From: Martelella sp. AD-3
Lineage (GTDB): Bacteria; Pseudomonadota; Alphaproteobacteria; Rhizobiales; Rhizobiaceae
Direction: 5' to 3'
DNA: 64,000 bases
Assembly (NCBI RefSeq): GCF_001578105.1
Contig: NZ_CP014275.1
Span: 682,001-746,000 of the forward strand
The position numbers were made by a program, and so were the translations under genes. The notes below the pieces were generated by a model. That model was given only the letters and a program-made list of their open reading frames with translations, was not told where the DNA came from and searched no databases. Shown piece after piece: positions 25,693 through 44,424 of this stretch (position 1 is the stretch's first letter; each line of letters starts with the position of its first letter).

Positions 25693-26007
25693 TCAATGAA
25701 GATGGAACATCTTCTTCAGGTCCACCTCAACCGGGGAATTGTCCGGATTGGTTTCCATGATATCGGCCATGAAGGCCCACCAGCGCTTGGCGATCTCGGT
25801 ATCGGGAATTGCATCCATCCGATGATCGTCGGTGCGTTTCAGCACCGCGAACAGGTGGTGGGTCTCCTCGTCAAGCCAGATCGAATAGTCGCAGACGCCG
25901 GAATCCTTCAGGAGCGCGGCAAGCTCCGGCCATATCTCGTCATGGCGGCGCCTGTATTCCTCGGCCTGGCCGCGGTTGAGGTTCATGCGAAAGGCGATGG
26001 TTTCCAT
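25693..26007 (-). CDS. rhaM: L-rhamnose mutarotase
   Basis: Interconverts alpha and beta anomers of L-rhamnose, needed because isomerase and transporter act on one anomer. The 104-residue protein matches the family throughout: AFRMNLNRGQAEEYRRRHDEIWPEL at the N-terminus with the active-site His, YSIWLDEETHHLFAVL in the middle and KRWWAFMADIMETNPDNSPVE at the end. Called rhaU in Rhizobium leguminosarum, where as I recall it sits between rhaQ and rhaK; here it is downstream of rhaI instead. Confidence 0.95.
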   Translation of the reverse strand: METIAFRMNLNRGQAEEYRRRHDEIWPELAALLKDSGVCDYSIWLDEETHHLFAVLKRTDDHRMDAIPDTEIAKRWWAFMADIMETNPDNSPVEVDLKKMFHLH

Positions 26008-26034: not shown

Positions 26035-27321
26035 CTACACGATGCCGCCGCCGGCCCCCGTGACGGCCGGGCGTTCGCCTGCGACCTTCTGCCGGTAGCC
26101 GGAAGCGCGATAGGCGGCGATCGGGTCGACCGCGCCGCCGGCGCGTTTGCGGGCCATGGCGAGGATCGGGCCGACATCGGTGCGGAAGGCGTCCTTCAGC
26201 GTTTCGGAAGCCATCATCGCATCGTTTTCCTCCTGATAGCCGGCAAGGGCGGCGCGATCGACCAGAAGCGCCTGGGCATAGGCGCGGCGGACTTCGATGG
26301 CCGAGCGCATCAGGCTTTCGATCGGGTCGGTGACATTGTGCGACTGGTCGAGCATGTGGGCGGGGTTGAAGCCGGGCGCGCCTTCCGCATCCACCAGTTC
26401 GTTGAAGACGAGGAACAGGCGGAACGGGTCGATCGAGCCCGTATCGAGGTCGTCGTCACCGTATTTGCTGTCGTTGAAATGGAAACCGCCGAGCTTGCCG
26501 AACTGGATCAGGCGCGCGACGATCATCTCGATATTGACGTTCGGCGCATGGTGACCGAGGTCGACGAGGCAGAAGGCCTTGGGACCGAGTTCCCTGGCGA
26601 TCAGGTAGTTCGTGCCCCAGTCCTGCACGACGGTCGAATAAAAGGCCGGCTCGAAGATCTTGTGCTCGGAGAAAATCCGCCAGTCATCCGGCAGCGCCGC
26701 GTAAATGCTCTTCATCGCCTCCAGATAGCGTTCGAACTGCTTTGTAAAATGGCTCTGGCCGGGAAAGTTGGAACCATCGCCGATCCACACGGTCAGCGCC
26801 TTGGAACCGAGCGCCTTGCCGATCTCTATACATTCGATGTTGTGGTCGATCGCCTGCTGGCGGGTCGCTGCATCGGTGTTGGAGAGCGAGCCGTATTTGT
26901 AGGAGTGCTCCTGGCCCGGCTGGTCCTGGAAGGTGTTGGAGTTCATTGCATCAAAGCCGAGGCCGAGCGCCGCGCCGCGCTGGCGCAGTTCGGAAAGGTC
27001 GTCCACCTTGTCCCACGGGATATGCAGCGAAACGGTCGGGGTGGCGCGCGTCAGTTGCTGGATCACAGCGCAGTCATCCAGCTTGTCGAAGATATGGCGC
27101 GGCTCGCCGGCGCCGGGAAAGCGGGCAAAGCGCGTGCCGCCGGTGCCGACGCCCCAGGAGGGCACGGCCACGCCATAGGCCGCGACCTTGGCGGTTACAT
27201 CGTCGATGCTGACGCCGCGGCGGGCGAGCTTTTCTCCGAGTGCGTTGTAGTCCCTCTCGAGGTCTTTGGCGCGCTTGTCGTTCTCTGCGGAAAGCACGCC
27301 GCCGTCGATCATCTGTTCCAT
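26035..27321 (-). CDS. rhaI: L-rhamnose isomerase, rhizobial/Pseudomonas type
   Basis: Converts L-rhamnose to L-rhamnulose. It belongs to the xylose-isomerase-like TIM-barrel group rather than the E. coli RhaA group; 428 residues. Metal-ligand regions are visible in ALTVWIGDGSNFPGQ, FSEHKIFEPAFYSTVVQDWG (Glu/His/Lys), FCLVDLGHHAPNVNIEMIV and GGFHFNDSKYGDDDLDTGS (His/Asp). Runs leftward after rhaD and before rhaM; the 114-bp gap to rhaD contains a half copy of the palindromic repeat. Confidence 0.96.
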   Translation of the reverse strand: MEQMIDGGVLSAENDKRAKDLERDYNALGEKLARRGVSIDDVTAKVAAYGVAVPSWGVGTGGTRFARFPGAGEPRHIFDKLDDCAVIQQLTRATPTVSLHIPWDKVDDLSELRQRGAALGLGFDAMNSNTFQDQPGQEHSYKYGSLSNTDAATRQQAIDHNIECIEIGKALGSKALTVWIGDGSNFPGQSHFTKQFERYLEAMKSIYAALPDDWRIFSEHKIFEPAFYSTVVQDWGTNYLIARELGPKAFCLVDLGHHAPNVNIEMIVARLIQFGKLGGFHFNDSKYGDDDLDTGSIDPFRLFLVFNELVDAEGAPGFNPAHMLDQSHNVTDPIESLMRSAIEVRRAYAQALLVDRAALAGYQEENDAMMASETLKDAFRTDVGPILAMARKRAGGAVDPIAAYRASGYRQKVAGERPAVTGAGGGIV

Positions 27322-27435: not shown

Positions 27436-29535
27436 CTACCGCGGAAACGACACCGCATTCCCCGCATCCACGTTGATGATATTCCCCGTCGATTTGGCCG
27501 ACATGTCGGAGGCGAGGAAGTAGATGGCTTCGGCGATATCCTCCGGGAACACCGAACGCTTCAGCATCGAGCGCTCGCGGTAATGCGCCTCCAGATCGTC
27601 GGTCGACATCTTGTAGGCGGCGGCGCGCTGTTCCTTCCACTCGCCAGTCCAGATCTTCGAGCCGCGCAGAACGGCATCCGGATTGACGGTGTTGACGCGG
27701 ATCTGGGCGCTTGCCCCTTCAAGCGCCAGGCAGCGGGCAAGATGGATTTCCGCGGCCTTGGCCGTGCAGTATGCGGATGCGCCGGGCGAGGCGGCCAGGC
27801 CGTTCTTCGACGAGACGAACACGACATTGCCGCCGGCATTCTGGTAGCGGAACAGGCGGAAGGCCTCGCGCGAGACGAGGAAATAGCCGGTTGCCAGAAT
27901 GGCGATGTTCTTGTCCCACAGATCGAGCGTCGTCTCCTCGATCGGGGCGGAGGAGGCGAGACCGGCATTGGAGACCAGAATATCAAGCCCCCCGAACTCC
28001 ACCACCGTATCGGCAAAGCCCTTGGCAACTTCGGCCTCGTCGGTGACGTTCAGGTGAACGCCGCGCACGATATCCTTGCTGAAGACGGAGGAGAGCTCGG
28101 CCTTGGCGGTTTCAAGCGCGGCATCATCGATATCGGCCAGCACCACGCAGGCGCCTTCGCCGGCAAGCCGGAAGGCGGTGGCCTTGCCGATGCCGCCGGC
28201 GCCGCCGGTCACGAGCGCTATTCTGCCGGCAAGCGGCTTCGGTTTCGGCATCCGCTGCAGCTTTGCCTCTTCCAGAAGCCAGTATTCGATATCGAAGGCC
28301 TCCTGTTCGGAAAGGCCCTGATAGGTCGAGACCGAGGATGCGCCGCGCATGACGTTGATGGCGTTGACGTAGAACTCGGCAGAAATGCGGGCCGTCGCCT
28401 TGTCCTTGGCAAAGGAGATCATGCCGACGCCGGGCACCAGGTAGATCACCGCATTCGGATCGCGCATCGCCGGCGAATTGTCGTGCTTGCAGCGCGCGTA
28501 ATAGGCGGCATAGTCCTCGCGATAGGCGCTGATCGCCTCCGGCAGGCCTTCGACCGTCTTGTCGATATCCGGGTTTTCCGGGTCGAAATCGACGACCAGC
28601 GGACGGATTTTCGTACGGAGAAAGTGGTCGGGGCAAGATGTGCCGAGGGCTGCGAGTTCCTCAAGCCGGTTGGAGGCGACGAATTCCAGAACGGCGGGCT
28701 GATCGTCGAAATGGCCGAGCTTGCCTTCGGTTTCCGAAATCATGCCGCGGATCTTCGGCATCAGTTTTTCGGCAATGGCGCGGCGGTCTTCGGCTGCAAG
28801 CGTCTTCACCTTTGGCCCGCCAAAGACCGGGCCTTCGATCTTCGCCTCGAGCCAGGCCATCGCCTTGTTGATGATCTCGAGCGTGGTCTCGTAGCTTTCC
28901 TTCGCCGTGTCGCCCCAGGTGAAAAGGCCATGGCTTTCGAGGATGACGCCGCGCGCATCCGGGTTTTCTGCGCAGAACTTGCCGAGCCACAGGCCCAGTT
29001 CATAGCCCGGACGCTTCCACGGCAGCCAGCCGATCTCGCCGCCGAAAATTTCCCTGGTCAGCGCCTCGGAATCGGCCGAAGCGGCAATGGCGATGATTGC
29101 GTCGGGGTGCATGTGGTCGACATGCCTTTTCGGCACATAGGCATGCAGCGGCGTGTCGATGGAGGCCGCGCGGGCATTCAGGTTGAAGGTGCAGTGGGGG
29201 AGGTAGCCCACCATCTCGTCTTCGTGCTCGATGCCGCGATAAAGCCCCTTCAACGCATTCAGCTTGTCCATGTAAAGCGTTGCAAAGCCGTCCATCTTGA
29301 TGGTGCCGACATCGCCGCCCGAGCCCTTCACCCACAAGACCTCGACCTGATCACCGGTGAGCGGGTCCTTTTCCATCACCTTGGCCGAGGTGTTGCCGCC
29401 GCCGTAATTGGTGATGCGCTTGTCGGAGCCCAGAAGATTGGAGCGATAGAGCAGCAGCTCGGATTCGCTCATGCCGTCGGCCTTGCCGTCATCCCACAGG
29501 TTCTCAAGCCGGGCGGCCCGGGTGTCATTCGCCAT
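27436..29535 (-). CDS. rhaD: Bifunctional rhamnulose-1-phosphate aldolase / lactaldehyde (alcohol) dehydrogenase
   Basis: Fusion enzyme of the rhizobial rhamnose pathway: the N-terminal class II aldolase domain (about residues 1-400) should split L-rhamnulose 1-phosphate into DHAP and L-lactaldehyde, and the C-terminal short-chain dehydrogenase domain (about 435-695) oxidises the aldehyde. The aldolase metal site is seen in HVDHMHPDAI and the later LESHGLFTWGD; the dehydrogenase has the Rossmann motif TGGAGGIGKA, LVSNAGLAS and the catalytic YCTAK. ATG 29535 is chosen because GGAGG lies 5 nt upstream; the preceding ATG at 29538 is also possible. 699 residues. Confidence 0.95.
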   Translation of the reverse strand: MANDTRAARLENLWDDGKADGMSESELLLYRSNLLGSDKRITNYGGGNTSAKVMEKDPLTGDQVEVLWVKGSGGDVGTIKMDGFATLYMDKLNALKGLYRGIEHEDEMVGYLPHCTFNLNARAASIDTPLHAYVPKRHVDHMHPDAIIAIAASADSEALTREIFGGEIGWLPWKRPGYELGLWLGKFCAENPDARGVILESHGLFTWGDTAKESYETTLEIINKAMAWLEAKIEGPVFGGPKVKTLAAEDRRAIAEKLMPKIRGMISETEGKLGHFDDQPAVLEFVASNRLEELAALGTSCPDHFLRTKIRPLVVDFDPENPDIDKTVEGLPEAISAYREDYAAYYARCKHDNSPAMRDPNAVIYLVPGVGMISFAKDKATARISAEFYVNAINVMRGASSVSTYQGLSEQEAFDIEYWLLEEAKLQRMPKPKPLAGRIALVTGGAGGIGKATAFRLAGEGACVVLADIDDAALETAKAELSSVFSKDIVRGVHLNVTDEAEVAKGFADTVVEFGGLDILVSNAGLASSAPIEETTLDLWDKNIAILATGYFLVSREAFRLFRYQNAGGNVVFVSSKNGLAASPGASAYCTAKAAEIHLARCLALEGASAQIRVNTVNPDAVLRGSKIWTGEWKEQRAAAYKMSTDDLEAHYRERSMLKRSVFPEDIAEAIYFLASDMSAKSTGNIINVDAGNAVSFPR

Positions 29536-29625
29536 CATTTCCTCCTTCGGGGCCTCTCGGCCTGGTTCTTCCCCGGCAAAATCCATCCGAAAGTCGGGCT
29601 TGTCAATCATAAACGCTCAATTTCG

Positions 29626-29668
29626 ATCAAAAATGGCACTATCGCAGTGCAGCATGACTATTTTTGAT
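29626..29668. promoter_or_regulatory. Candidate RhaR operator in the rhaD-rhaR divergent promoter region
   Basis: The 179-bp region between the two divergent genes contains an inverted repeat ATCAAAAAT (29626-29634) / ATTTTTGAT (29660-29668), with a second small palindrome GCACT-N5-AGTGC (29636-29650) inside. A TTGACA at 29668-29673 could be the -35 of rhaR. DeoR-family regulators often bind repeated TTTTGAT-like motifs. That RhaR is the ligand is inferred from position. Confidence 0.55.
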
Positions 29669-29714
29669 TGACACTGATGGAAATTCGCTGAACTCTGTCA
29701 AAAAGGGAGGCCCC

Positions 29715-30515
29715 ATGCACGAGAAAGAGCGTCATCGCATCATCCTGTCGGCCGTACAGGAAAAGCCGGTTGTGACCGTTGGGGAGCTCGTCGATCTGAC
29801 GGAGAGTTCCGAGGCGACGATCCGGCGCGATATCGCGGCTCTGCATGTGGCCAAGCGCCTGCGCCGGGTGCGCGGCGGGGCGGAGGCGCTCAGCCCGCCG
29901 CAATTCGTCGGCCTTGCCGGCCGGCCCTTCAGCGTCAACCAGACGATGAACGCGCGGCAGAAGCAGGCGATCGCCAAGGCGGCCGTCGCGCTGTGCGATG
30001 ACGGTGATTCCGTCATCATCAATGGCGGCACGACCACGTTTCAGATGGTCCATCACCTCGCCAATCGCCGGCTGCAGGTGTTCACCAATTCCTTTCCGAT
30101 CGCGGAGCATCTGCTGAAGCATTCGAAGAACACGGTGATGCTGTCGGGGGGCGTGATCTACCGCGAGCAGAACGTGATCCTGAGCCCGTTTGAAAACGAC
30201 GTGACCCGAAATTTCTGGGCAAGGCGGATGTTCATGGGCGCGCAAGGGATCGGCCCGCTCGGCCTGATGGAGGCCGACCCGCTTTTGATCCAGGCCGAGC
30301 AGAAGCTGATCGACCAGGCGGAAGACCTGGTTGTTCTGGTGGATTCATCAAAATTCAAGCAGCGGTCGAGCCTTATCCTTTGCGGGCTGAAAAGAATCTC
30401 GACCGTGATTACCGATTCCGGGCTGCAGGCGTCTGACGCCCGCATGCTGGAGGAGGCCGGCGTTTCGGTGATCATCGCCGATGCGCAGGCAATGGAGGAA
30501 ACCGGTTCGGGCTGA
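29715..30515 (+). CDS. rhaR: DeoR-family transcriptional regulator of rhamnose genes
   Basis: Cytoplasmic repressor or activator. ATG 29715 follows GGGAGG and gives 266 residues. The N-terminal winged helix-turn-helix has the DeoR signature (VTVGELVDLTESSEATIRRDIAALHVAKRLRRVRGGA, about 19-55). The C-terminal sugar-phosphate-sensor domain carries INGGTTTFQM, the MFMGAQGIGPLGLMEADPLLIQ segment and VLVDSSKF. First gene of rhaRSTPQK, divergent from rhaDI. Confidence 0.93.
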   Translation: MHEKERHRIILSAVQEKPVVTVGELVDLTESSEATIRRDIAALHVAKRLRRVRGGAEALSPPQFVGLAGRPFSVNQTMNARQKQAIAKAAVALCDDGDSVIINGGTTTFQMVHHLANRRLQVFTNSFPIAEHLLKHSKNTVMLSGGVIYREQNVILSPFENDVTRNFWARRMFMGAQGIGPLGLMEADPLLIQAEQKLIDQAEDLVVLVDSSKFKQRSSLILCGLKRISTVITDSGLQASDARMLEEAGVSVIIADAQAMEETGSG

Positions 30516-30568: not shown

Positions 30569-31558
30569 ATGAGCATTTTGAAGAAAGTTCTCGTGGGAGC
30601 GCTGCTCTCCACCGCGCTCGTTGCGCAAGGCGCGCATGCCGCCGACAAGAAGATCGCGCTGGTGGTGAAGGCGCTCGGCATCGGCTTTTTCGAGGCCGCT
30701 GCGGAAGGCGCCGAAGAGGCCGCCAAGGAAATCGGCGATGTCGAACTGATTTACACGGGCCCGACCGATACCACCGCCGAAGGCCAGATCGACGTGATCA
30801 ATTCGCTGATCGCCCAGAAGGTCGATGCGATTGCGATCTCGGCCAATGACCCGGATGCTCTGGTGCCGGCGCTCAAACGCGCCATGCAGCGCGGCATCAA
30901 GGTCGTTTCCTGGGATTCCGGCGTCGCACCGGAAGGCCGCATGGTGCACTTGAACCCCTCGTCCAATCCGCTGATCGGTAACATGATCATCAAGCTTGCC
31001 GCCGACAATCTGCCGGATGGCGGCGAGGTCGCCGTGCTTTCGGCATCGGCGACGGCGACGAACCAGAACACCTGGATCGATGAAATGAACAAGGTGAAGG
31101 GCGACTACCCGAACATCGATGTCGTCACCACGGTTTACGGCGACGACCTGTTCGACAAGTCCTATCGCGAGACCCAGGGCCTCATCCAGTCCTATCCGGA
31201 TCTGAAGGCGATCATCGCGCCGACCTCCGTCGGCATCGTCGCCGCCGCCCAGGCCGTGACGGATGAAGGCAAGATCGGCGAGATCAACGTCACCGGCCTT
31301 GGTCTTCCGTCCGAAATGGCGGCCTATGTCGACAATGGCGCATCGAAATCCTTCGCCATCTGGAACCCGATCGACCTTGGCTATGCCGCCGTCATGCTGT
31401 CGAACGACCTGATCGACGGCGCGAAAGCCGAACCGGGGGCAGAGCTTTCCATGGGCCGCCTCGGCGATCTGACGCTCGATGACGACAATGCCGGCGCCAT
31501 GGCCGATCCCTTCGTCTACGACAAGTCGAACATCGACAAGTTCAAGGACATTTTCTGA
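30569..31558 (+). CDS. rhaS: L-rhamnose ABC transporter substrate-binding protein
   Basis: Periplasmic receptor of the ribose-binding-protein type (peripla_BP_4). Signal peptide MSILKKVLVGALLSTALVA with cleavage near AHA-AD; 329 residues. The mature N-terminus KKIALVVKALGIGFFEAAAEGAEEAAKE and the DTTAEGQIDVINSLIAQKVDAIAISANDPDAL segment are characteristic. A GGAGGAG ribosome site lies just upstream. It follows rhaR by 53 bp; the 308-bp gap after it holds a composite repeat. Confidence 0.94.
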   Translation: MSILKKVLVGALLSTALVAQGAHAADKKIALVVKALGIGFFEAAAEGAEEAAKEIGDVELIYTGPTDTTAEGQIDVINSLIAQKVDAIAISANDPDALVPALKRAMQRGIKVVSWDSGVAPEGRMVHLNPSSNPLIGNMIIKLAADNLPDGGEVAVLSASATATNQNTWIDEMNKVKGDYPNIDVVTTVYGDDLFDKSYRETQGLIQSYPDLKAIIAPTSVGIVAAAQAVTDEGKIGEINVTGLGLPSEMAAYVDNGASKSFAIWNPIDLGYAAVMLSNDLIDGAKAEPGAELSMGRLGDLTLDDDNAGAMADPFVYDKSNIDKFKDIF

Positions 31559-31619
31559 GGTTGTTCTTGCTGCGGTGAAGTCTGGCTCTGCTGATAGACA
31601 CCCAAATGCCCCTCCGAAT

Positions 31620-31768
31620 TCGATCTCCCCCCTTGAGGGGGAGATGTCGCGAAAGCGACAGAGAGGGGTAAAGGGCGCAAGCCCTAAGAGCCGCAGTCTC
31701 CGTGCTCTCGGATGGGGTTCACCCCCCCTCTGCCCTTGTCGGGGCATCTCCCCCTCAAGGGGGGAGAA
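31620..31768. repeat. Palindromic intergenic repeat, copy 2 (inverted pair)
   Basis: Composite of two inverted units: the left starts GATCTCCCCCCTTGAGGGGG, then ATGTCGCGAAAGCGACAGAG and AGGGGTAAAG; the right ends GGCATCTCCCCCTCAAGGGG. Fills most of the 308-bp rhaS-rhaT gap, within the operon. The rest of that gap (31559-31619, 31769-31866) shows nothing else. Confidence 0.87.
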
Positions 31769-31866
31769 TGCTGGTTGCCACATCTGGACAAGCCACTCCC
31801 GCAAACAATCCGGCCCGCTCCGATCTCGGCGGGTCGGCACCTCAGTAAAAACACGGCAGGCCCTTG

Positions 31867-32945
31867 ATGCCAGACGCACAGAAAAACGCCGCCATCGCCC
31901 TTGACGGCATCACCAAGACCTTTCCGGGCGTTCGCGCGCTGTCGGATGTCTCCCTTGCGCTCTATCCGGGAGAGGTGACCGCGCTTGTCGGCGAAAACGG
32001 CGCGGGCAAGTCGACGCTCGTCAAAATCCTGACAGGCATTTACCAGCCGGATGGCGGCGAGATCACTATCGACGGTGCGCCTGTCCGCTTCCCGACGGCG
32101 GAAGCGGCAAGCGAACATGGCGTCACGGCGATCCATCAGGAAACCGTATTGTTCGACGCGCTGACGGTTGCCGAAAACATCTTCATCGGTCACGCGCCGA
32201 CCAACCGTTTCGGCCTGATCGACTGGAAGCAGATCCATGATCGCGCCCGCGATATTCTCGACAGTATCGGCGCGCGCATCGATCCGCGCCATCGCCTGTC
32301 CGAGCTTGGCATCGCCAATCGCCACATGGTGGCCGTTGCCCGCGCGCTTTCCGTCGATGCCCGCGTGGTCATCATGGACGAGCCGACGGCAGCCCTGTCG
32401 CAAAAGGAAATCGAGGAGCTTTACGAACTGGTCGAGAAGCTGAAGGCGGACGGCAAGGCGATCCTGTTCATCTCCCACAAATTCGACGAGATTTTTCGCA
32501 TTGCTGATCGCTATACTGTCTTTCGCGACGGCGAGATGGTGGGTGAGGGCAGGATCGCCGAGACCGACGAGAATGCGCTGGTGGAACTGATGGTCGGGCG
32601 GCCTGTCGACCAGGTCTTCCCCAAGCAGGAGGTCGCAATCGGCGGGCCGGTGCTGACGGTGTCGGGCTATCGTCACCCGACCGAATTCGAGGATATCGGC
32701 TTCACCCTTCGGCGCGGCGAGATCCTCGGCTTCTATGGTCTTGTCGGGGCCGGGCGGTCGGAATTCATGCAGGCGCTGTTCGGCATCACCCGGCCTGCGG
32801 CCGGCGCCGTGCGGATTGATGACGAGATCGCCGTCATCCGCTCGCCCTCGGAAGCGGTGAAGCAGGGCATCGTCTATGTGCCGGAGGAACGCGGCACGCA
32901 GGGCACGATCACCGCCATGCCGATCTTCGAAAACGTCACGCTGCC
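31867..32945 (+). pseudogene. rhaT: rhaT 5' fragment: rhamnose ABC ATPase, interrupted by an insertion sequence
   Basis: N-terminal 359 or so residues of a double ABC ATPase of the RbsA/RhaT type. The first ABC domain is complete except that the usual signature is replaced by LSELGIANRHMVAVARAL, as in many RbsA-like proteins: Walker A GENGAGKST (about 40-48), Q-loop IHQETVLFDALT, Walker B VVIMDEPTAALS. The second domain starts with GLVGAGRSE and is cut after FENVTLP. Beyond 32945 the frame runs 22 bp into the insertion sequence and stops at 32967. The rest of the gene resumes at 34460 in register. ATG 31867 is preferred over the TTG 3 nt before it. Confidence 0.95.
32938..32945 (+). repeat. 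Left copy of 8-bp target-site duplication
   Basis: ACGCTGCC, the last rhaT bases before the insertion sequence. An identical octamer occurs at 34460-34467. Removing the element and one copy restores the reading frame as FENVTLPSLSKVSRRGFVRMA. Confidence 0.85.
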
Positions 32946-33033
32946 TGTTCCGTCTCAACGCCTTTGAGACAGATCTGGCTTAACGGATAAGGGAGGGTTT
33001 TGGCTCATCATAGCGCACGCAAAGGAAGCGAAG

Positions 33034-33408
33034 ATGAGACAGAAATCCGGGCAGCAGAAGCCGACGGCAGACAAGGCGATCAAGGATATCCGCCGGGCCA
33101 CACGCAAATCCTATTCGGCCGAGGAAAAGATCCGCATTGTGCTGGAAGGCCTGCGCGGCGAAGACAGTATCGCCGCGCTCTGCCGCCGCGAGGGTATCGC
33201 CGAAAGCATGTATTACACTTGGTCGAAGGAATTTCTCGAGGCCGGCAAGCGGCGCCTGGCCGGCGATACGGCTCGGGCCGCAACGACGGATGAGGTGAAG
33301 GCATTACGTCGGGAAACACGCGATCTGAAAGAGGTCGTGGCCGAGCAGACGCTGGAGCTGCGCCTGCTCAAAAAAAGCATGATCGGGGATGGGGACGCAG
33401 AAGAATGA
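33034..33408 (+). CDS. Insertion sequence OrfA, helix-turn-helix protein
   Basis: 124-residue DNA-binding protein of the transposase-8 type. Helix-turn-helix around residues 25-60 (YSAEEKIRIVLEGLRGEDSIAALCRREGIAESMYYTWSKEF), followed by a leucine-zipper-like coiled coil (ALRRETRDLKEVVAEQTLELRLLKKSM, about 88-114). The stop overlaps the ATG of OrfB by 4 bp (ATGA). No slippery A6G frameshift signal was seen at the junction, so OrfB is probably made by translational coupling. Confidence 0.92.
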   Translation: MRQKSGQQKPTADKAIKDIRRATRKSYSAEEKIRIVLEGLRGEDSIAALCRREGIAESMYYTWSKEFLEAGKRRLAGDTARAATTDEVKALRRETRDLKEVVAEQTLELRLLKKSMIGDGDAEE

Positions 33409-34385
33409 GATACCCCGCATCCGAGAAGTTGGAAATCATCCGGCTGGTCGAGCAATCGCACCTGCCGGTGAAGAAGACACTGGAGCAGCTCGCCATTCCC
33501 CGCCAGACCTTTTACCGCTGGTATGACCGTTTCCAGCGCTTTGGCGTTGAGGGGCTGGAGGACCGCTCATCCGCCCCGTCACGGGTATGGAACCGCATTC
33601 CCGATACTATCAGGGACGAGGTGATAGAGCTGGCGCTTGAAGAGCCGGAGCTCTCCCCGCGCGAACTGGCGGTGACCTTCACCGACACAAAAAGCTATTT
33701 CGTATCAGAGGCGTCCGTCTATCGCCTGCTCAAGGCGCACGATCTGATCACCTCGCCAGCCTTCATTGTCGTCAAGGCGGACAATGAATTCAGGGACAAG
33801 ACCGTTCGCCCCAATGAGATGTGGCAAACCGATTTCACCTATCTGAAGGTGATCGGCTGGGGCTGGTTGTATCTGTCCACCATCCTCGATGACTTTTCCC
33901 GATATATCGTGGGATGGAAACTGTGCACGAACATGAAGGTGGGTGATGTAACCGACACGCTGAACATTGCGCTTTCTGCATCCGGCTGCGACAGCGTCAA
34001 GGTGGAGCACAAACCGCGGCTTCTGTCGGATAATGGCGGATGCTACATCGCCGAAGACCTGGCGGACTGGCTGAAGGACAGGAAGATGGAGCAGCTTCAC
34101 GGCGCGCCCGGTCATCCGCAGACCCAAGGCAAGATCGAGCGCTGGCACCAGACGCTGAAAAACCGGATCCTGCTCGAGAATTACTTCTTCCCCGAAGACC
34201 TTGAAGCGCAGATCGGCGCATTCATCGACCATTACAACAATCGCCGATACCACGAGAGCCTCGGCAACCTCACACCGGCGGATGTCTACTTCGGCAGAGG
34301 AGACGAAATCCTGAAACAGCGAAAGAGGATCAAGCAACAGACCATTCAAAACCGACGCTTGCAACACCACGCAAACGCGGCTTAA
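33405..34385 (+). CDS. Insertion sequence OrfB, DDE transposase (rve integrase core)
   Basis: 326-residue transposase. The N-terminus has its own helix-turn-helix (LPVKKTLEQLAIPRQTFYRWYDRFQRFG) and the integrase core follows. The catalytic triad is visible: Asp in MWQTDFTYLKV, Asp in LLSDNGGCY, and Glu in GKIERWHQ exactly 35 residues after the second Asp, the DD(35)E spacing. The C-terminal HYNNRRYHESLGNLTPADVYFG is typical of IS3/IS481 enzymes. No internal stop, so probably active. Confidence 0.95.
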   Translation: MRYPASEKLEIIRLVEQSHLPVKKTLEQLAIPRQTFYRWYDRFQRFGVEGLEDRSSAPSRVWNRIPDTIRDEVIELALEEPELSPRELAVTFTDTKSYFVSEASVYRLLKAHDLITSPAFIVVKADNEFRDKTVRPNEMWQTDFTYLKVIGWGWLYLSTILDDFSRYIVGWKLCTNMKVGDVTDTLNIALSASGCDSVKVEHKPRLLSDNGGCYIAEDLADWLKDRKMEQLHGAPGHPQTQGKIERWHQTLKNRILLENYFFPEDLEAQIGAFIDHYNNRRYHESLGNLTPADVYFGRGDEILKQRKRIKQQTIQNRRLQHHANAA

Positions 34386-34459
34386 ATCAACACATCAGAC
34401 GAGCCAATCTCTCCTGATAGCCAGACCCCATTCTGTCCATAATCATTCGACGACGGACA

Positions 34460-34467
34460 ACGCTGCC
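34460..34467 (+). repeat. Right copy of 8-bp target-site duplication
   Basis: ACGCTGCC directly after the insertion sequence; identical to 32938-32945. These bases belong in register to the rhaT 3' fragment. Confidence 0.85.
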
Positions 34468-34900
34468 GTCGCTCTCCAAGGTCTCGCGCAGAGGCTTTGT
34501 CCGCATGGCCGAGGAATTTGCCCTGGCGCGGGAGTTTACCGGGCGGCTGGACCTGCGCGCGGCCTCGCTCGACCAGCCCGTCGGCAATCTCTCCGGCGGC
34601 AACCAGCAGAAGGTGGTGATCGCCAAATGGCTGGCGACCCAGCCGAAAGTGATCATTCTCGATGAGCCGACCAAGGGCATCGATATCGGTTCGAAATCCG
34701 CCGTTCATGCCTTCATGAGCGAGCTTGCGGGCAGGGGGCTCTCCATCATCATGGTCTCGTCAGAAATTCCGGAAATCCTCGGCATGTCCGACCGGGTCAT
34801 CGTCATGCGCGAGGGGCGGATCGTCGCCGAGCTTGCGCGCGATGAGATGTCGGCGGAAAAGCTGGTGCGGGCAGCAGCCGGCATCGGGGCGGCAGCATGA
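34460..34900 (+). pseudogene. rhaT: rhaT 3' fragment (C-terminal half of second ABC domain)
   Basis: Continues the reading frame of the 5' fragment after the insertion sequence (TLPSLSKVSRRGFVRMAEEF). An internal ATG at 34505 could start a 131-residue peptide with the signature LSGGNQQKVVIAKWL, Walker B VIILDEPTKGID and the switch region VSSEIPEIL. It has no Walker A, so on its own it cannot hydrolyse ATP. The stop overlaps rhaP by 4 bp (ATGA), the original operon arrangement. Base composition matches its neighbours. Confidence 0.93.
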
Positions 34901-35880
34901 TGGCGCGGATACTCAAACATCGCGAGGCGCTGCTCTTCGTCGCCATATTGATGCTCGTCGGCGCGATCGAGCTGCGTTTCCCGGGCTTCGTCGCGCCGCG
35001 CAATCTCGTCTCGATCTATAATGATACGGCGATCCTGATCATCCTGGCGCTGGGACAAGCCGCCGTCATCCTGTCGCGCGGCATCGATCTTTCCATCGCC
35101 GCCAATCTGGCGCTGTCGGGCACCATTGCCGCCCTTCTGAATGTCGCCTTTCCCGACCTGCCGGTGATCTTTCTTCTGGTGGCCGCCACCGTCAGCGGCG
35201 CGGGGCTCGGCGCCATCAACGGGCTTCTGGTTTGGCGCCTGTCGATCCCGCCCATCGTGGTGACGCTCGGCACGATGACCATTTATCGCGGCACGATCTT
35301 TCTTCTGACGGGCGGCGCCTGGGTCAATGCCCATGAGATGACCGATGCCTTCAAGGCGGTGCCGCGCGCCGTCTTTCTCGGCATTCCGGTGCTTGCCTGG
35401 TTCTCGCTGGCCGTCATTGTGGTGATGATGGCGGTGCTGGTCATGACCCGGCTTGGCCGCGCCTTTTATGCCGTCGGCGGCAATCCCCATGCGGCGGTCT
35501 ATACGGGCATTTCGGTCGGTCGCACGCATTTCTTTGCCTATCTGATCGCCGGCGCGCTCGCCGGTCTTGCCGGTTATCTGTGGACCGCGCGCTATGCCGT
35601 CGCCTATGTCGATATCGCCAATGGTTTCGAACTGGACGTGGTCGCCGCCTGCGTCATCGGCGGCATCTCGATTGCCGGCGGTGCGGGCACGGCCATCGGC
35701 GCGGTGCTCGGCGCGCTCTTCCTCGGCATCATCAAGAATGCGCTGCCGGTGATCGATGTCTCGCCCTTCTGGCAAATGGCGATTTCGGGCACGGTCATCA
35801 TCATCGCGGTTGCCGTCAACGCGCGCTCCTCGCGCGTCAAGGGCCGCGTCATCCTGAAAAAAGCGGAGCATGCGCTATGA
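34897..35880 (+). CDS. rhaP: L-rhamnose ABC transporter permease
   Basis: Membrane subunit of the RbsC/BPD_transp_2 type, 327 residues and about 8-10 hydrophobic segments. Typical features: ALGQAAVILSRGIDLSIAANLALSG (about 52-76), LSIPPIVVTLGTMTIYRG, the YAVGGNPHAAVYTGI segment and GGISIAGGAGTAIGAVLGALFLGII. The start overlaps the stop of rhaT. Downstream of the insertion sequence, so its transcription may be reduced by polarity or driven from an element promoter. Confidence 0.93.
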   Translation: MMARILKHREALLFVAILMLVGAIELRFPGFVAPRNLVSIYNDTAILIILALGQAAVILSRGIDLSIAANLALSGTIAALLNVAFPDLPVIFLLVAATVSGAGLGAINGLLVWRLSIPPIVVTLGTMTIYRGTIFLLTGGAWVNAHEMTDAFKAVPRAVFLGIPVLAWFSLAVIVVMMAVLVMTRLGRAFYAVGGNPHAAVYTGISVGRTHFFAYLIAGALAGLAGYLWTARYAVAYVDIANGFELDVVAACVIGGISIAGGAGTAIGAVLGALFLGIIKNALPVIDVSPFWQMAISGTVIIIAVAVNARSSRVKGRVILKKAEHAL

Positions 35881-36887
35881 GTGTCAGCGAAACGCGGTTT
35901 GTCCCCGACCGCCTGCATGGGCGTGGTTACCGGATGGCCCGCAGTTGGGAGAGCCTGCTGGTCGTGGTGGTGGTCGCGATCTTCATCGTCAACAGTTTCG
36001 CCTCGCCCTATTTCCTTGACGCTTGGAACCTGTCGGATGCGACCTTCAACTTCACCGAAAAGGCGCTGATTGCCTTTGCCATGGCGCTCGTCATCATATC
36101 GGGCGAGATCGACCTGTCGGTCGCCGCCATCATCGCGCTCGCCTCCACCGCCATGGGCTATGCCGCGCAGTTCGGCGCGGGAACGCCGGAACTTGTGGCA
36201 ATCGGCCTTGGCGTCGGCCTGTTGTGCGGCGCCTTCAACGGGTTTCTCATCACCGGTCTCGGCCTGCCGTCCATCGTCGTCACCATCGGCACGATGAGCC
36301 TCTTCCGCGGGCTTTCCTATGTCGTCCTCGGCGACAAGGCCTTTACCGGCTATCCGCCCGGTTTCGCCTTTTTCGGCCAGGGCTACGTGTTCTGGGTCAT
36401 CTCATTCGAATTTGTGCTGTTTGCCGTCATGGCCGTGCTTTTCGGCATCTTGCTGCATCTCACAAGCTTCGGCCGCATGGTCTATGCGATTGGCAACAAC
36501 GCCACCGCCGCCCGCTTTTCCGGCATCCGCGTGGGGCGGGTGAAGTTCCTGCTGTTCCTGATGACCGGGGTGATGTCCGGCATGGCGGCAATCTGCCTGA
36601 CCTCCCGCCTCGGCTCGACGCGTCCGTCGATCGCCTTTGGCTGGGAGCTCGAGATCGTCACCATGGTGGTGCTGGGCGGGATCAACATTCTCGGCGGCGC
36701 GGGCACGATCATCGGCGTCGTGCTCGCCGCCTTCATCATGGGGCTGGTCACCTTCGGCTTCGGGCTGATGAATGTGCCGGGAATCGTCATGTCGATCTTC
36801 ATCGGTCTTCTGCTGATTGGCGTGATCGCATTGCCTGTGCTCTATACGAGGATCGCAAGGCGGTTCAGACGGGATGAGGCGCAATGA
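35877..36887 (+). CDS. rhaQ: L-rhamnose ABC transporter permease
   Basis: Second RbsC-type permease, 336 residues from ATG 35877, overlapping rhaP by 4 bp. Landmarks: ALVIISGEIDLSVAAIIALAS, LGLPSIVVTIGTMSLFRGLSYV, YAIGNNATAARFSGIRV and GGINILGGAGTIIGVVLAAFIMG. The cytoplasmic N-terminus (about 20 residues) is hydrophilic. Pairs with rhaP as heterodimer. Confidence 0.93.
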   Translation: MSVSETRFVPDRLHGRGYRMARSWESLLVVVVVAIFIVNSFASPYFLDAWNLSDATFNFTEKALIAFAMALVIISGEIDLSVAAIIALASTAMGYAAQFGAGTPELVAIGLGVGLLCGAFNGFLITGLGLPSIVVTIGTMSLFRGLSYVVLGDKAFTGYPPGFAFFGQGYVFWVISFEFVLFAVMAVLFGILLHLTSFGRMVYAIGNNATAARFSGIRVGRVKFLLFLMTGVMSGMAAICLTSRLGSTRPSIAFGWELEIVTMVVLGGINILGGAGTIIGVVLAAFIMGLVTFGFGLMNVPGIVMSIFIGLLLIGVIALPVLYTRIARRFRRDEAQ

Positions 36888-38263
36888 GTGACATCCGCAA
36901 TGTCGCGGTCATCGATATCGGCAAGACCAATGCCAAGGTCATCCTCTATGGTCTGGAGAAAGGCCGCGAGGTCGATACGCGGTCAAAGCGCAATGTCGTC
37001 ACGGGCGATTCGCCCTATCCGCATTTCGAGGTGGACGACCTTTTCGGCTTCATTCTGGAAGCGCTTGCCGCCTTTCAGGATCAGCATGGCGTCGACGCAA
37101 TCTCCGTGACCACGCATGGCGCGACGGCGGCGCTCCTGAAGCGTGACGGAACGCTGGCGCTCCCGGTGCTCGACTACGAACATACCGGTCCCGACGAAAC
37201 CCGCGCTGACTACGAAGAAATCCGCCCGCCCTTTGCCGAGACCGGCTCGCCGCGCCTTGCCATGGGGCTCAATATCGGCGCCCAGCTCTTCTGGCAGAAG
37301 ACCAGGTTTCCCGACCAGTTCGCCGAGATCGACTGCATACTGCCCTATCCGCAATATTGGGGCTTTCGTCTCACCGGTCGGCGCGCCGGCGAGGCGACGA
37401 GCTGGGGCTGCCACACCGATCTATGGTCGCCGCGCACGAAAACCTTCTCCTCGCTGGTCGCGGAACTCGGCCTTTTCGGCAAAATGGGAGAGATCGTCAG
37501 GGCTGACGAGAAGCTGGGCGCGGTGTTGCCGGAGATCGCGAAGAAGACGGGGCTTGCCCCAAACTGCCCGGTTTTTGCCGGCATTCACGATTCCAACGCC
37601 TCGCTGCTGCCGCATCTGTGGTCGCGCGCGCAACCTTTTTCCGTGGTCTCGACAGGCACCTGGGTGATTGCCATGGCGGTTGGCGGGCATCCGCCGGCTC
37701 TGGATGAAAGCCGGGATACGCTGATCAACGTCAACGCTTATGGCGATCCGGTGCCCTCCGCGCGGTTTATGGGCGGACGGGTCTTCGAGGTGGCGGCGCC
37801 CGGCGGCGAGGTTGCCGTCACCGAAGACGACTGCAAGGCGATGCTGAAGAACCGGATCATGATGATGCCGTCGGTGCTCGGCGATACCGGGCCGTTTCAG
37901 GGGATCATCGGCGGCTGGACGGTGGACGAGCATCATCTGACGCCCGGCATGCGTCTTCTCGGCGTTTCCTGGTATCTGGCGCTGATGACGGCGATCTGCC
38001 TTGACCTGACCGGGGCTTCTGGACCGGTAATCGTGGAAGGCCCGTTTGCCGAAAACCACGACTATCTCTCCATGCTCTCGGCCGCGACCGGCCGTCCGGT
38101 GGAGAAAAGCCCGGGCAGCGGCACCAGCGCCGGCGCGGCAGGCCTTGCCGTGGGCGGCATCAAGCTCTCCGCCTTCAAGCCCCATCCCGAATCGCTGTCG
38201 GGTCTTGCCGACCTCAACGCTTACGCGGAAATCTGGCGGGAAAGGCTGCCGGAGGTGGAATGA
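36884..38263 (+). CDS. rhaK: L-rhamnulose kinase, FGGY family
   Basis: Phosphorylates L-rhamnulose. The 459-residue protein has the FGGY two-domain layout: phosphate-1 motif IDIGKTNAKV (about 10-19), VTTHGAT, the YWGFRLTG segment with the hexose-binding region, FAGIHDSNASLLPHL, and the phosphate-2/adenosine region SVVSTGTWVIAM. It overlaps rhaQ by 4 bp. In R. leguminosarum RhaK was reported to be required also for rhamnose transport, so it may interact with the importer. Ends 7 bp from the convergent regulator gene. Confidence 0.94.
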   Translation: MSDIRNVAVIDIGKTNAKVILYGLEKGREVDTRSKRNVVTGDSPYPHFEVDDLFGFILEALAAFQDQHGVDAISVTTHGATAALLKRDGTLALPVLDYEHTGPDETRADYEEIRPPFAETGSPRLAMGLNIGAQLFWQKTRFPDQFAEIDCILPYPQYWGFRLTGRRAGEATSWGCHTDLWSPRTKTFSSLVAELGLFGKMGEIVRADEKLGAVLPEIAKKTGLAPNCPVFAGIHDSNASLLPHLWSRAQPFSVVSTGTWVIAMAVGGHPPALDESRDTLINVNAYGDPVPSARFMGGRVFEVAAPGGEVAVTEDDCKAMLKNRIMMMPSVLGDTGPFQGIIGGWTVDEHHLTPGMRLLGVSWYLALMTAICLDLTGASGPVIVEGPFAENHDYLSMLSAATGRPVEKSPGSGTSAGAAGLAVGGIKLSAFKPHPESLSGLADLNAYAEIWRERLPEVE

Positions 38264-43026: not shown

Positions 43027-44424
43027 ATGCAGGCCGACGCGACAGCGCTCGCCGCCGCGATCGGCAAGGGTGATGTTTCGGCGCGGCAGGCGATGGAAGC
43101 ATCGCTTGCGGCCTCTGATGCGTGGGCGCATCTCGGCGCCCTTTGTGGTCGCGACCCTGAAACAGGGCTCGCGGCCGCTGATCGGTTTGACGGTCTTTCA
43201 GCGGACGTAAAGGCGGCGATGACCTTCGGCGGCGTGCCGACGCTTGCCAAGGATCTCGGCGGGCCTTTCTCGGGCCTTGCCGTTACTGCCGGATCGCGCG
43301 CGCTTGTCGGCGGGGATGCCGGCGCCGACAGCGAGATCGCCGCCCGCTTTCGCGACGCCGGGTTCTCTCTTTTCGGGCTGACGACGAGCCCCGAATTCGG
43401 CCTGTCGCTCGCCAGCGAACCGGCAAAGGGCCCGATCTGCCGCAATCCGCTGGATGAAAGCCGCTCGCCCGGCGGTTCATCGGGCGGCGCTGCCGCCGCC
43501 GTCGCCGCCGGCATTGTTTCCATTGCGCATGCGACAGATGCTGGCGGCTCCATCCGCGTGCCCGCCGCCTGCTGCGGCCTCGTCGGCCTGAAACCCTCGC
43601 GCGGCGCGATGCCGGCGGGTCCCGCCTATGGCAATTATCTCGGCGGCATTGCCACCGAACTTGCCGTCTGTCGCTCGGTCCGGGATGCGGACGGTGTCTT
43701 TCGCGCGATCGCCGGCAATGCGCGCGGACCGTTTCCGCCGCCGGCTTTTGCCGACGTGCCCGAGGGCAGTCTGCGCATCGGCGTTCTGACCGAGACCGAT
43801 GTCAGCGCTGATCCGGCGCGCCTTGGCGTGGTCGAAGATGCCGCAAAAGCGCTTGAGGCGAGGGGGCATCGTCTTCGCCCTGTCGGCTGGGCCGAAATCG
43901 AAACGCCGGCAAGGGCCAGCGCTTCCGCCTTTGCCGATATTGCAGCTGCCAACCTTGCCGAGACGACCAGCCGCTTCGGCCTCGACCTTGAGATGGTTGA
44001 ACCGATGACGCGCGCCGTCATTGAACGTGGCCGGGCGATGCGGCCGGAAGGGGTCTGGTCGCTCATCAATGAGATGGCGCTGATCGCCCGCGATCTCTGG
44101 CGGCTGTTCGAAGGTATTGACTGTCTGATCTGCCCGATGCTGACCGATCAGCCGAAGCCGGTGGGCAGTTTTCCGACCGATCATGATGACTGGCCGCTGC
44201 ATTTCGAGAGGATGAGGGCTTTTGCCCCGCTCGCCGCCCTTGCCAACCTTTCCGGTTTTCCGGCAATAACATTGCCATTCGGCGCGGATGGCATCGGCCT
44301 GCCTTTGCCGGTGCAGATGATCGCGCCGATGGGGTCTGAGGCCGTTTTGCTGAAACTTGCTGCGGAACTGGAACGGGAAGCCCGCTGGCAGCACCGCTTT
44401 GCTATTGCAGGAGCTTGCGCATGA
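43027..44424 (+). CDS. Amidase (amidase-signature family)
   Basis: 465 residues from ATG 43027. The Ser-cisSer-Lys catalytic triad is present: Lys75 in LAKDLGG, cis-Ser152 in GGSSGG (149-154) and nucleophile Ser175 in DAGGSIRVPA. No signal peptide, so it acts in the cytoplasm on the imported compound or its deaminated product. It lies inside the importer operon: 9 bp after the receptor and overlapping the ATPase gene by 4 bp. A GatA role is excluded by this context and the absence of gatC and gatB. Substrate unknown. Confidence 0.9.
   Translation: MQADATALAAAIGKGDVSARQAMEASLAASDAWAHLGALCGRDPETGLAAADRFDGLSADVKAAMTFGGVPTLAKDLGGPFSGLAVTAGSRALVGGDAGADSEIAARFRDAGFSLFGLTTSPEFGLSLASEPAKGPICRNPLDESRSPGGSSGGAAAAVAAGIVSIAHATDAGGSIRVPAACCGLVGLKPSRGAMPAGPAYGNYLGGIATELAVCRSVRDADGVFRAIAGNARGPFPPPAFADVPEGSLRIGVLTETDVSADPARLGVVEDAAKALEARGHRLRPVGWAEIETPARASASAFADIAAANLAETTSRFGLDLEMVEPMTRAVIERGRAMRPEGVWSLINEMALIARDLWRLFEGIDCLICPMLTDQPKPVGSFPTDHDDWPLHFERMRAFAPLAALANLSGFPAITLPFGADGIGLPLPVQMIAPMGSEAVLLKLAAELEREARWQHRFAIAGACA

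What the first reader, a model, noticed from the sequence alone, without database searches (positions are those of the whole stretch)
31867..34900. rhaT split by an intact insertion sequence
The transporter ATPase gene is cut in its second ABC domain. Removing the element plus one 8-bp repeat restores the frame exactly, and the rest of the pathway is intact, so the insertion is recent. The strain should lack L-rhamnose import by this route unless another ATPase (e.g. those at 44421, 18509 or 58212) substitutes or the element excises.
Basis: partly seen in the sequence, partly recalled or inferred. Interest (0 to 1): 0.75.

Follow-up and report, generated by a model that had tools for sequence, protein, structure and literature searches.

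The report
Rhamnose transporter gene split by IS
A common kind of jumping DNA has recently landed inside a sugar-uptake gene of a Martelella-like bacterium and very probably switched off its rhamnose importer; this is an ordinary gene-breaking event, worth a note in the annotation but not a new kind of system.

Summary
A 1514-bp IS3-like element (32946-34459) sits in rhaT, the ATPase gene of a RhaSTPQ-type L-rhamnose importer, flanked by an exact 8-bp repeat (ACGCTGCC, 32938-32945 and 34460-34467). The flanks with one repeat copy read as one 503-codon frame that aligns without a gap at the site with nine relatives. Both parts lie in one open frame in 81 of 82 sequences examined; the window is the exception. 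The genome holds six full element copies, five identical over 1514 bp, and neither half of rhaT shows decay, so the insertion looks recent. It separates the second ATPase domain's Walker A from its signature motif. The next-best RhaS-like protein is 33% identical and no PF06379 permease was found. The rest of the pathway is open. The likeliest meaning is loss of rhamnose import, probably with lower rhaPQK expression; a Sinorhizobium meliloti rhaT::Tn5 mutant failed to grow on rhamnose but kept some uptake (PMC9025865). No phenotype is known here. The case is ordinary. Side points: 8-10-bp target duplications at some copies of this IS, and a dispersed hairpin repeat between rhaS and rhaT.

The parts
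31867..32945 (+). rhaT 5' part: first ATPase domain and the start of the second, to the end of the left repeat; as it stands the frame ends at 32967 inside the element
32938..32945 (.). left copy of the 8-bp target duplication ACGCTGCC
32946..34459 (+). IS3-like insertion sequence, 1514 bp, ends TGTTCC...GGACA
   Evidence: six full copies in the genome, five identical over 1514 bp
33034..33408 (+). orfA of the element (HTH_Tnp_1)
33405..34385 (+). orfB of the element, DDE transposase (rve), D-D-35-E; its frame is open from 33294, overlapping orfA by 115 bases
34460..34467 (.). right copy of the 8-bp target duplication
34468..34900 (+). rhaT 3' part: signature motif LSGGNQQK (34589-34612, read by eye), Walker B and C-terminus of the second ATPase domain
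29664..30515 (+). rhaR-like DeoR-family regulator (open frame; true start not settled)
30569..31558 (+). rhaS, rhamnose-binding protein (TIGR02637, 461 bits, cut-off 342.25)
34897..35880 (+). rhaP-like permease (BPD_transp_2; named from gene order)
35877..36887 (+). rhaQ-like permease (BPD_transp_2; named from gene order)
36884..38263 (+). rhaK-like FGGY sugar kinase (named from gene order)
27436..29610 (-). rhaD, bifunctional rhamnulose-1-phosphate aldolase/dehydrogenase
26035..27321 (-). rhaI, rhizobial-type rhamnose isomerase (TIGR02629, 838.7 bits, cut-off 646.75)
25699..25998 (-). rhamnose mutarotase (PF05336 rhaM), next to rhaI
   Evidence: C1:707699-707998 minus the window offset of 682000; a second match lies at C1:398464

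Best explanation
An IS3-like element transposed recently, by ordinary insertion with an 8-bp target duplication, into codon 360 of rhaT in a Martelella-type bacterium. Shown: the insertion, the duplication, the two broken pieces, the otherwise open rha locus, identical element copies and no sign of decay. Inferred: the upstream product (366 residues, the last six or seven from the element) keeps the first ATPase domain and the second domain's Walker A but lacks the second domain's signature motif. In this protein the one standard ATP site would pair the first domain's Walker motifs with the second domain's signature, so no working ATPase is expected. Also inferred: the element lowers transcription of rhaP, rhaQ and rhaK. 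The expected result is no effective L-rhamnose import by RhaSTPQ.
For: Exact 8-bp duplication. Flanks read as 503 codons, gap-free at the site against nine relatives. Both parts in one open frame in 81 of 82 sequences: 80 named loci, being those kept of 497 matches, plus G007's locus; the window is the exception. Six full element copies; five identical over 1514 bp, the sixth across the start of contig C3 with one base fewer. No clear relaxed constraint: window against M. mediterranea DSM 17316 (G007), M. radicis and M. lutilitoris gives dN/dS 0.033, 0.044, 0.060 for the 5' part, against 0.043-0.053 among those three; for the 3' part 0.111, 0.107, 0.078 against 0.022-0.163. Private residues of the window: 0 of 358 (5'), 2 of 143 (3'). 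Next-best RhaS-like protein 33% identical; no PF06379 permease, while the same search rang in 2 of 14 controls. Precedent: S. meliloti rhaT::Tn5 SRmA145 did not grow on rhamnose; that insertion was polar on rhaK (PMC9025865, passages).
Against: No phenotype is known for this strain. The same S. meliloti mutant kept rhamnose transport above the uninduced level, so import need not be zero. Seventeen other sugar-type ATPase genes match over at least 341 of 359 residues, so cross-talk cannot be excluded. One 5'-part dN/dS value (0.060) is just above the range among relatives. The promoter scan found one weak + strand site in the element's right end (34414-34443), with 1.2 expected in the scanned region by chance, so polarity is not certain.
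Confidence: 0.9

Rival explanations
1. Rhamnose import survives because another sugar ATPase of the same class works with RhaPQ.
For: 17 other genes match over at least 341 of 359 residues, the best 50% identical (C1:3837238). S. meliloti transporter mutants show residual uptake (PMC9025865, passages).
Against: The best paralogue has its own neighbours: a binding protein whose best model is RbsB and a permease whose best model is AraH, all under the models' cut-offs. The S. meliloti rhaT mutant did not grow on rhamnose. The candidates in the window are 28-37% identical.
Confidence: 0.07
2. The two halves of RhaT are both made and reassemble into a working ATPase.
For: The 3' part has an in-frame ATG (34505) and carries the signature motif and Walker B.
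Against: The second domain itself is cut between Walker A and the signature, not at a domain boundary. The ATG is an internal methionine present in all nine aligned relatives. The promoter scan found no more sites than chance.
Confidence: 0.02
3. The insertion is an assembly artefact that places one of several identical IS copies in rhaT.
For: Six near-identical copies exist, and contig C3 starts inside one; I saw no reads.
Against: A misjoin would not be expected to give an exact 8-bp duplication with both halves of one gene in register on either side.
Confidence: 0.02

Closest known systems
RhaSTPQ-RhaK rhamnose import locus of Rhizobium leguminosarum and Sinorhizobium meliloti
   Same: Same set: regulator, binding protein, ATPase, two permeases, kinase, with isomerase and aldolase/dehydrogenase genes in a separate transcript (PMC9025865 passages)
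   Different: rhaT is interrupted here; the mutarotase gene lies beside rhaI rather than between rhaQ and rhaK
IS3-like element ISMch3 family (Methylorubrum extorquens CM4 plasmid pCMU01)
   Same: 74.0% identical DNA over 84% of the element; the same 1352-base transposase span as the M. mediterranea copy
   Different: Sequence divergence; no target duplication of 6 bp or more found at that copy
IS3 family copy on Martelella mediterranea DSM 17316 plasmid pMM259
   Same: 92.7% identical over the full 1514 bp
   Different: Different site, no target duplication

Membership tests
IS3 family insertion sequence | OrfB matches the IS3 transposase model above its cut-off | tested here: met
   NF033516 190.3 bits, cut-off 160; the IS481 model scores higher (207.1) but under its own cut-off of 224
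IS3 family insertion sequence | Two overlapping frames, orfA (HTH) and orfB (DDE), with orfB in the -1 frame | tested here: met
   orfA 33034-33408 and a -1 frame open from 33294, 115-base overlap with an A7 run; frameshifting itself not tested
IS3 family insertion sequence | D-D-35-E catalytic triad (rule recalled) | tested here: met
   35 residues between the second D and the E
IS3 family insertion sequence | Short target duplications, usually 3-5 bp (recalled, not taken from a call) | tested here: not met
   8, 9 and 9 bp at 3 of 6 copies here, the other 3 with at most 1 base; 10 bp at 1 of 3 full copies in same-genus genomes; 9 bp at 1 of 12 plasmid loci scanned. I therefore say IS3-like rather than typical member
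IS481 family insertion sequence | Transposase above the IS481 model cut-off | tested here: not met
   207.1 bits against 224
RhaSTPQ L-rhamnose ABC importer | Rhamnose-binding protein RhaS over its curated cut-off | tested here: met
   TIGR02637 461 bits, cut-off 342.25
RhaSTPQ L-rhamnose ABC importer | Complete two-domain ATPase | tested here: not met
   Interrupted at 32946
RhaSTPQ L-rhamnose ABC importer | Rhamnose uptake activity | not testable with these tools
   -

The most novel reading that the evidence does not exclude
The element belongs to a distinct group between IS3 and IS481: IS3-like orfA and -1 overlap, an OrfB that scores higher with the IS481 model, and 8-10-bp target duplications. 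If so, duplication length in these elements is not tied to the two-frame IS3 layout.
Probability: 0.2. Interest if true: 0.3.

Novelty: new member of a known kind. Interest (0 to 1): 0.12.

Why it matters
For anyone using this genome it warns that rhaT is broken and that rhamnose use predicted from the other pathway genes could be wrong. It also gives a natural rhaT knock-out with the rest of the locus open. The general lesson is ordinary: resident IS copies interrupt dispensable sugar genes.

Tried and rejected
Rejected: a new gene at 34505 (its ATG is an internal methionine in all nine aligned relatives). Not supported: an outward promoter in the element (1 site found, 1.2 expected over the scanned region). 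Not supported: decay of rhaT since insertion. Rejected: the copy at C1:2976650 as a duplication-free insertion inside one gene. Its flanks read as one frame when joined, but in the 3 loci looked at (L148, L149, L150, from G005, G004, G012; two shorter matches were not looked at) the left flank continues into other sequence exactly at the boundary. So that copy appears to lie at a rearrangement junction; its right flank was not searched. The missing duplications at C1:3936339 and C3:1 were not resolved. PMC11708052 (passages) lists recombination, adjacent deletion and loss of the repeat as causes, and proposes insertion during rearrangement.

Phenotype in print: Table 1 of PMC8401316 gives L-rhamnose for ten columns as 2 positive, 4 negative, 4 not recorded (passages; the names of columns 3-10 were not seen). 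The two positives are M. soudanensis NC18 and NC20 (6.1 Mb; 3 contigs). G012, a genome of that size and contig number, has no RhaT match at E<=1e-120 (identity inferred from size only), so this test does not track rhaT simply. The search for Martelella plus rhamnose listed 12 papers; I saw passages of one of them. I did not identify the strain.

Target duplications elsewhere: of 12 plasmid-record loci scanned (TG...CA ends, repeats of 6 or more), 1 gave a convincing 9-bp repeat (Sphingobium, 14 of 20 end bases paired), 1 gave a 7-bp repeat with poorer ends (9 of 20), and 10 gave none. Shuffled flanks gave a repeat of 7 or more in 18 of 1200 trials, and in 2 of 1200 with 9 or more end bases paired. 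One of the 12 (L119) is the same copy as L120.

Full report
What is there. The window lies in a 5.04-Mb, three-contig genome (G000:C1:682001-746000). Its rha genes are closest to Martelella: M. radicis and M. lutilitoris are 96% identical for the RhaT 5' part. G007, 97% identical there, carries the related IS at the same coordinates as M. mediterranea DSM 17316 plasmid pMM259 (197434-198947). The strain itself was not identified.

The locus is a rhizobial-type rhamnose locus. On the minus strand lie a mutarotase (25699-25998), rhaI (26035-27321) and rhaD (27436-29610); on the plus strand a DeoR-type regulator, rhaS (30569-31558), rhaT, rhaP (34897-35880), rhaQ (35877-36887) and rhaK (36884-38263). 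The frames other than rhaT are open. RhaS, RhaI and RhaD pass curated cut-offs; RhaP, RhaQ and RhaK are named from general family matches plus gene order.

The insertion. The element occupies 32946-34459, is 1514 bp long and is bordered by ACGCTGCC on both sides. The joined flanks give 503 codons with no internal stop, and the protein aligns without a gap at the site with nine relatives. Three of the seven Martelella-type relatives start at the same ATG and have 503 codons; for the other four I counted from the corresponding position, which is not a Met. In one search both parts of rhaT lay in one open frame in 81 of 82 sequences; the exception is the window. Those 82 are the 80 loci kept (of 497 matches), G007's locus and the window; no row was dropped. 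In the genus search 10 of 13 genomes, this one included, have a RhaT match at E<=1e-120; in the nine others the open frame is 512 codons or more; three genomes (G003, G009, G012) have no such match.

Age. Six full copies of the element are in the genome. Five are identical over 1514 bp; the sixth spans the start of contig C3 and lacks one base. The three full-length copies found in same-genus genomes are 91-93% identical, so the spread in this strain looks recent. Both halves of rhaT evolve about as slowly as in relatives with an intact gene: dN/dS for the 5' part is 0.033, 0.044 and 0.060 against three relatives, and 0.043-0.053 among those relatives; for the 3' part it is 0.078-0.111 against 0.022-0.163, with only 143 codons and so noisy. 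No decay signal is visible.

Mechanism. RhaT is a fused pair of ATPase domains. By motif reading (names recalled), the first domain has a standard Walker A (GENGAGKST) and Walker B but a divergent signature region (LGIANRHM); the second has a divergent Walker A (GLVGAGRSE) but a standard signature (LSGGNQQK, 34589-34612). ABC ATP sites form between the Walker motifs of one domain and the signature of the other, so the one standard site needs the second domain's signature. The element separates it from everything upstream, and the N-terminal product ends at 32967. This step is inference from established knowledge of ABC transporters.

Expected phenotype. In S. meliloti a rhaT::Tn5 mutant failed to grow on rhamnose, and a rhaP deletion gave only very weak growth after more than ten days; both kept uptake above the uninduced level (PMC9025865, passages). 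The same passages describe the R. leguminosarum regulator, transporter, mutarotase and kinase genes as one transcript, and RhaK as needed for transport. An insertion that lowers rhaPQK expression would thus hit transport twice. I found no clear back-up: the best of 12 other RhaS-like matches is 33% identical, no PF06379 rhamnose permease was found, and the best RhaT paralogue, 50% identical, has other neighbours.

The element. It is IS3-like by model score, two overlapping frames and D-D-35-E. Of the 30 plasmid records listed, 17 have an IS3 family label at the match, one is labelled IS3-like ISMch3 family, and 12 have no feature or another one. OrfB scores higher with the IS481 model, though under that model's cut-off. 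Target duplications are 8, 9 and 9 bp at three of six copies here, 10 bp at one of three same-genus copies (L130) and 9 bp at one of 12 plasmid loci scanned. The other three copies here have at most one matching base; one of them appears to lie at a rearrangement junction and two were not resolved. I recall 3-5 bp as usual for IS3; no call gave that number.

Verdict. It is an ordinary, recent IS knock-out of a sugar transporter gene; the functional loss is very likely but not measured.

Noticed in passing
31624-31767: Between rhaS and rhaT lies a long hairpin repeat (31618-31772 folds at -103.5 kcal/mol, z -9.42). A search of the genome gave 91 matches, all on contig C1 and none on C2 or C3; the repeat is palindromic, so many matches are two strands or pieces of one place. 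In the rhaS-rhaT gap it is present in the window, M. radicis and G007 and absent in the other 6 of 9 loci; the best matches in the two relatives are inverted. It resembles rhizobial intergenic mosaic repeats (recalled).
   Followed up: partly
L114 (C1:2976650-2978163): An identical IS copy without target duplication appears to lie at a rearrangement junction; the joined flanks happen to read as one frame, which could mislead an annotator.
   Followed up: partly
G000:C3:1-1510: The 166,530-bp contig starts inside an IS copy that has one base fewer than the others; the last three bases of the element are at the contig's other end, as for a circular plasmid cut inside the copy.
   Followed up: no
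L113 (C1:3936339-3937852): An identical IS copy with no target duplication lies in what looks by eye like another transposase gene whose frame does not continue across the site.
   Followed up: no
33370-33376: An A7 run in the orfA/orfB overlap is a candidate site for slippage; the M. mediterranea and ISMch3 copies are annotated as single 1352-base genes, a length not divisible by three, which fits a frameshift.
   Followed up: no
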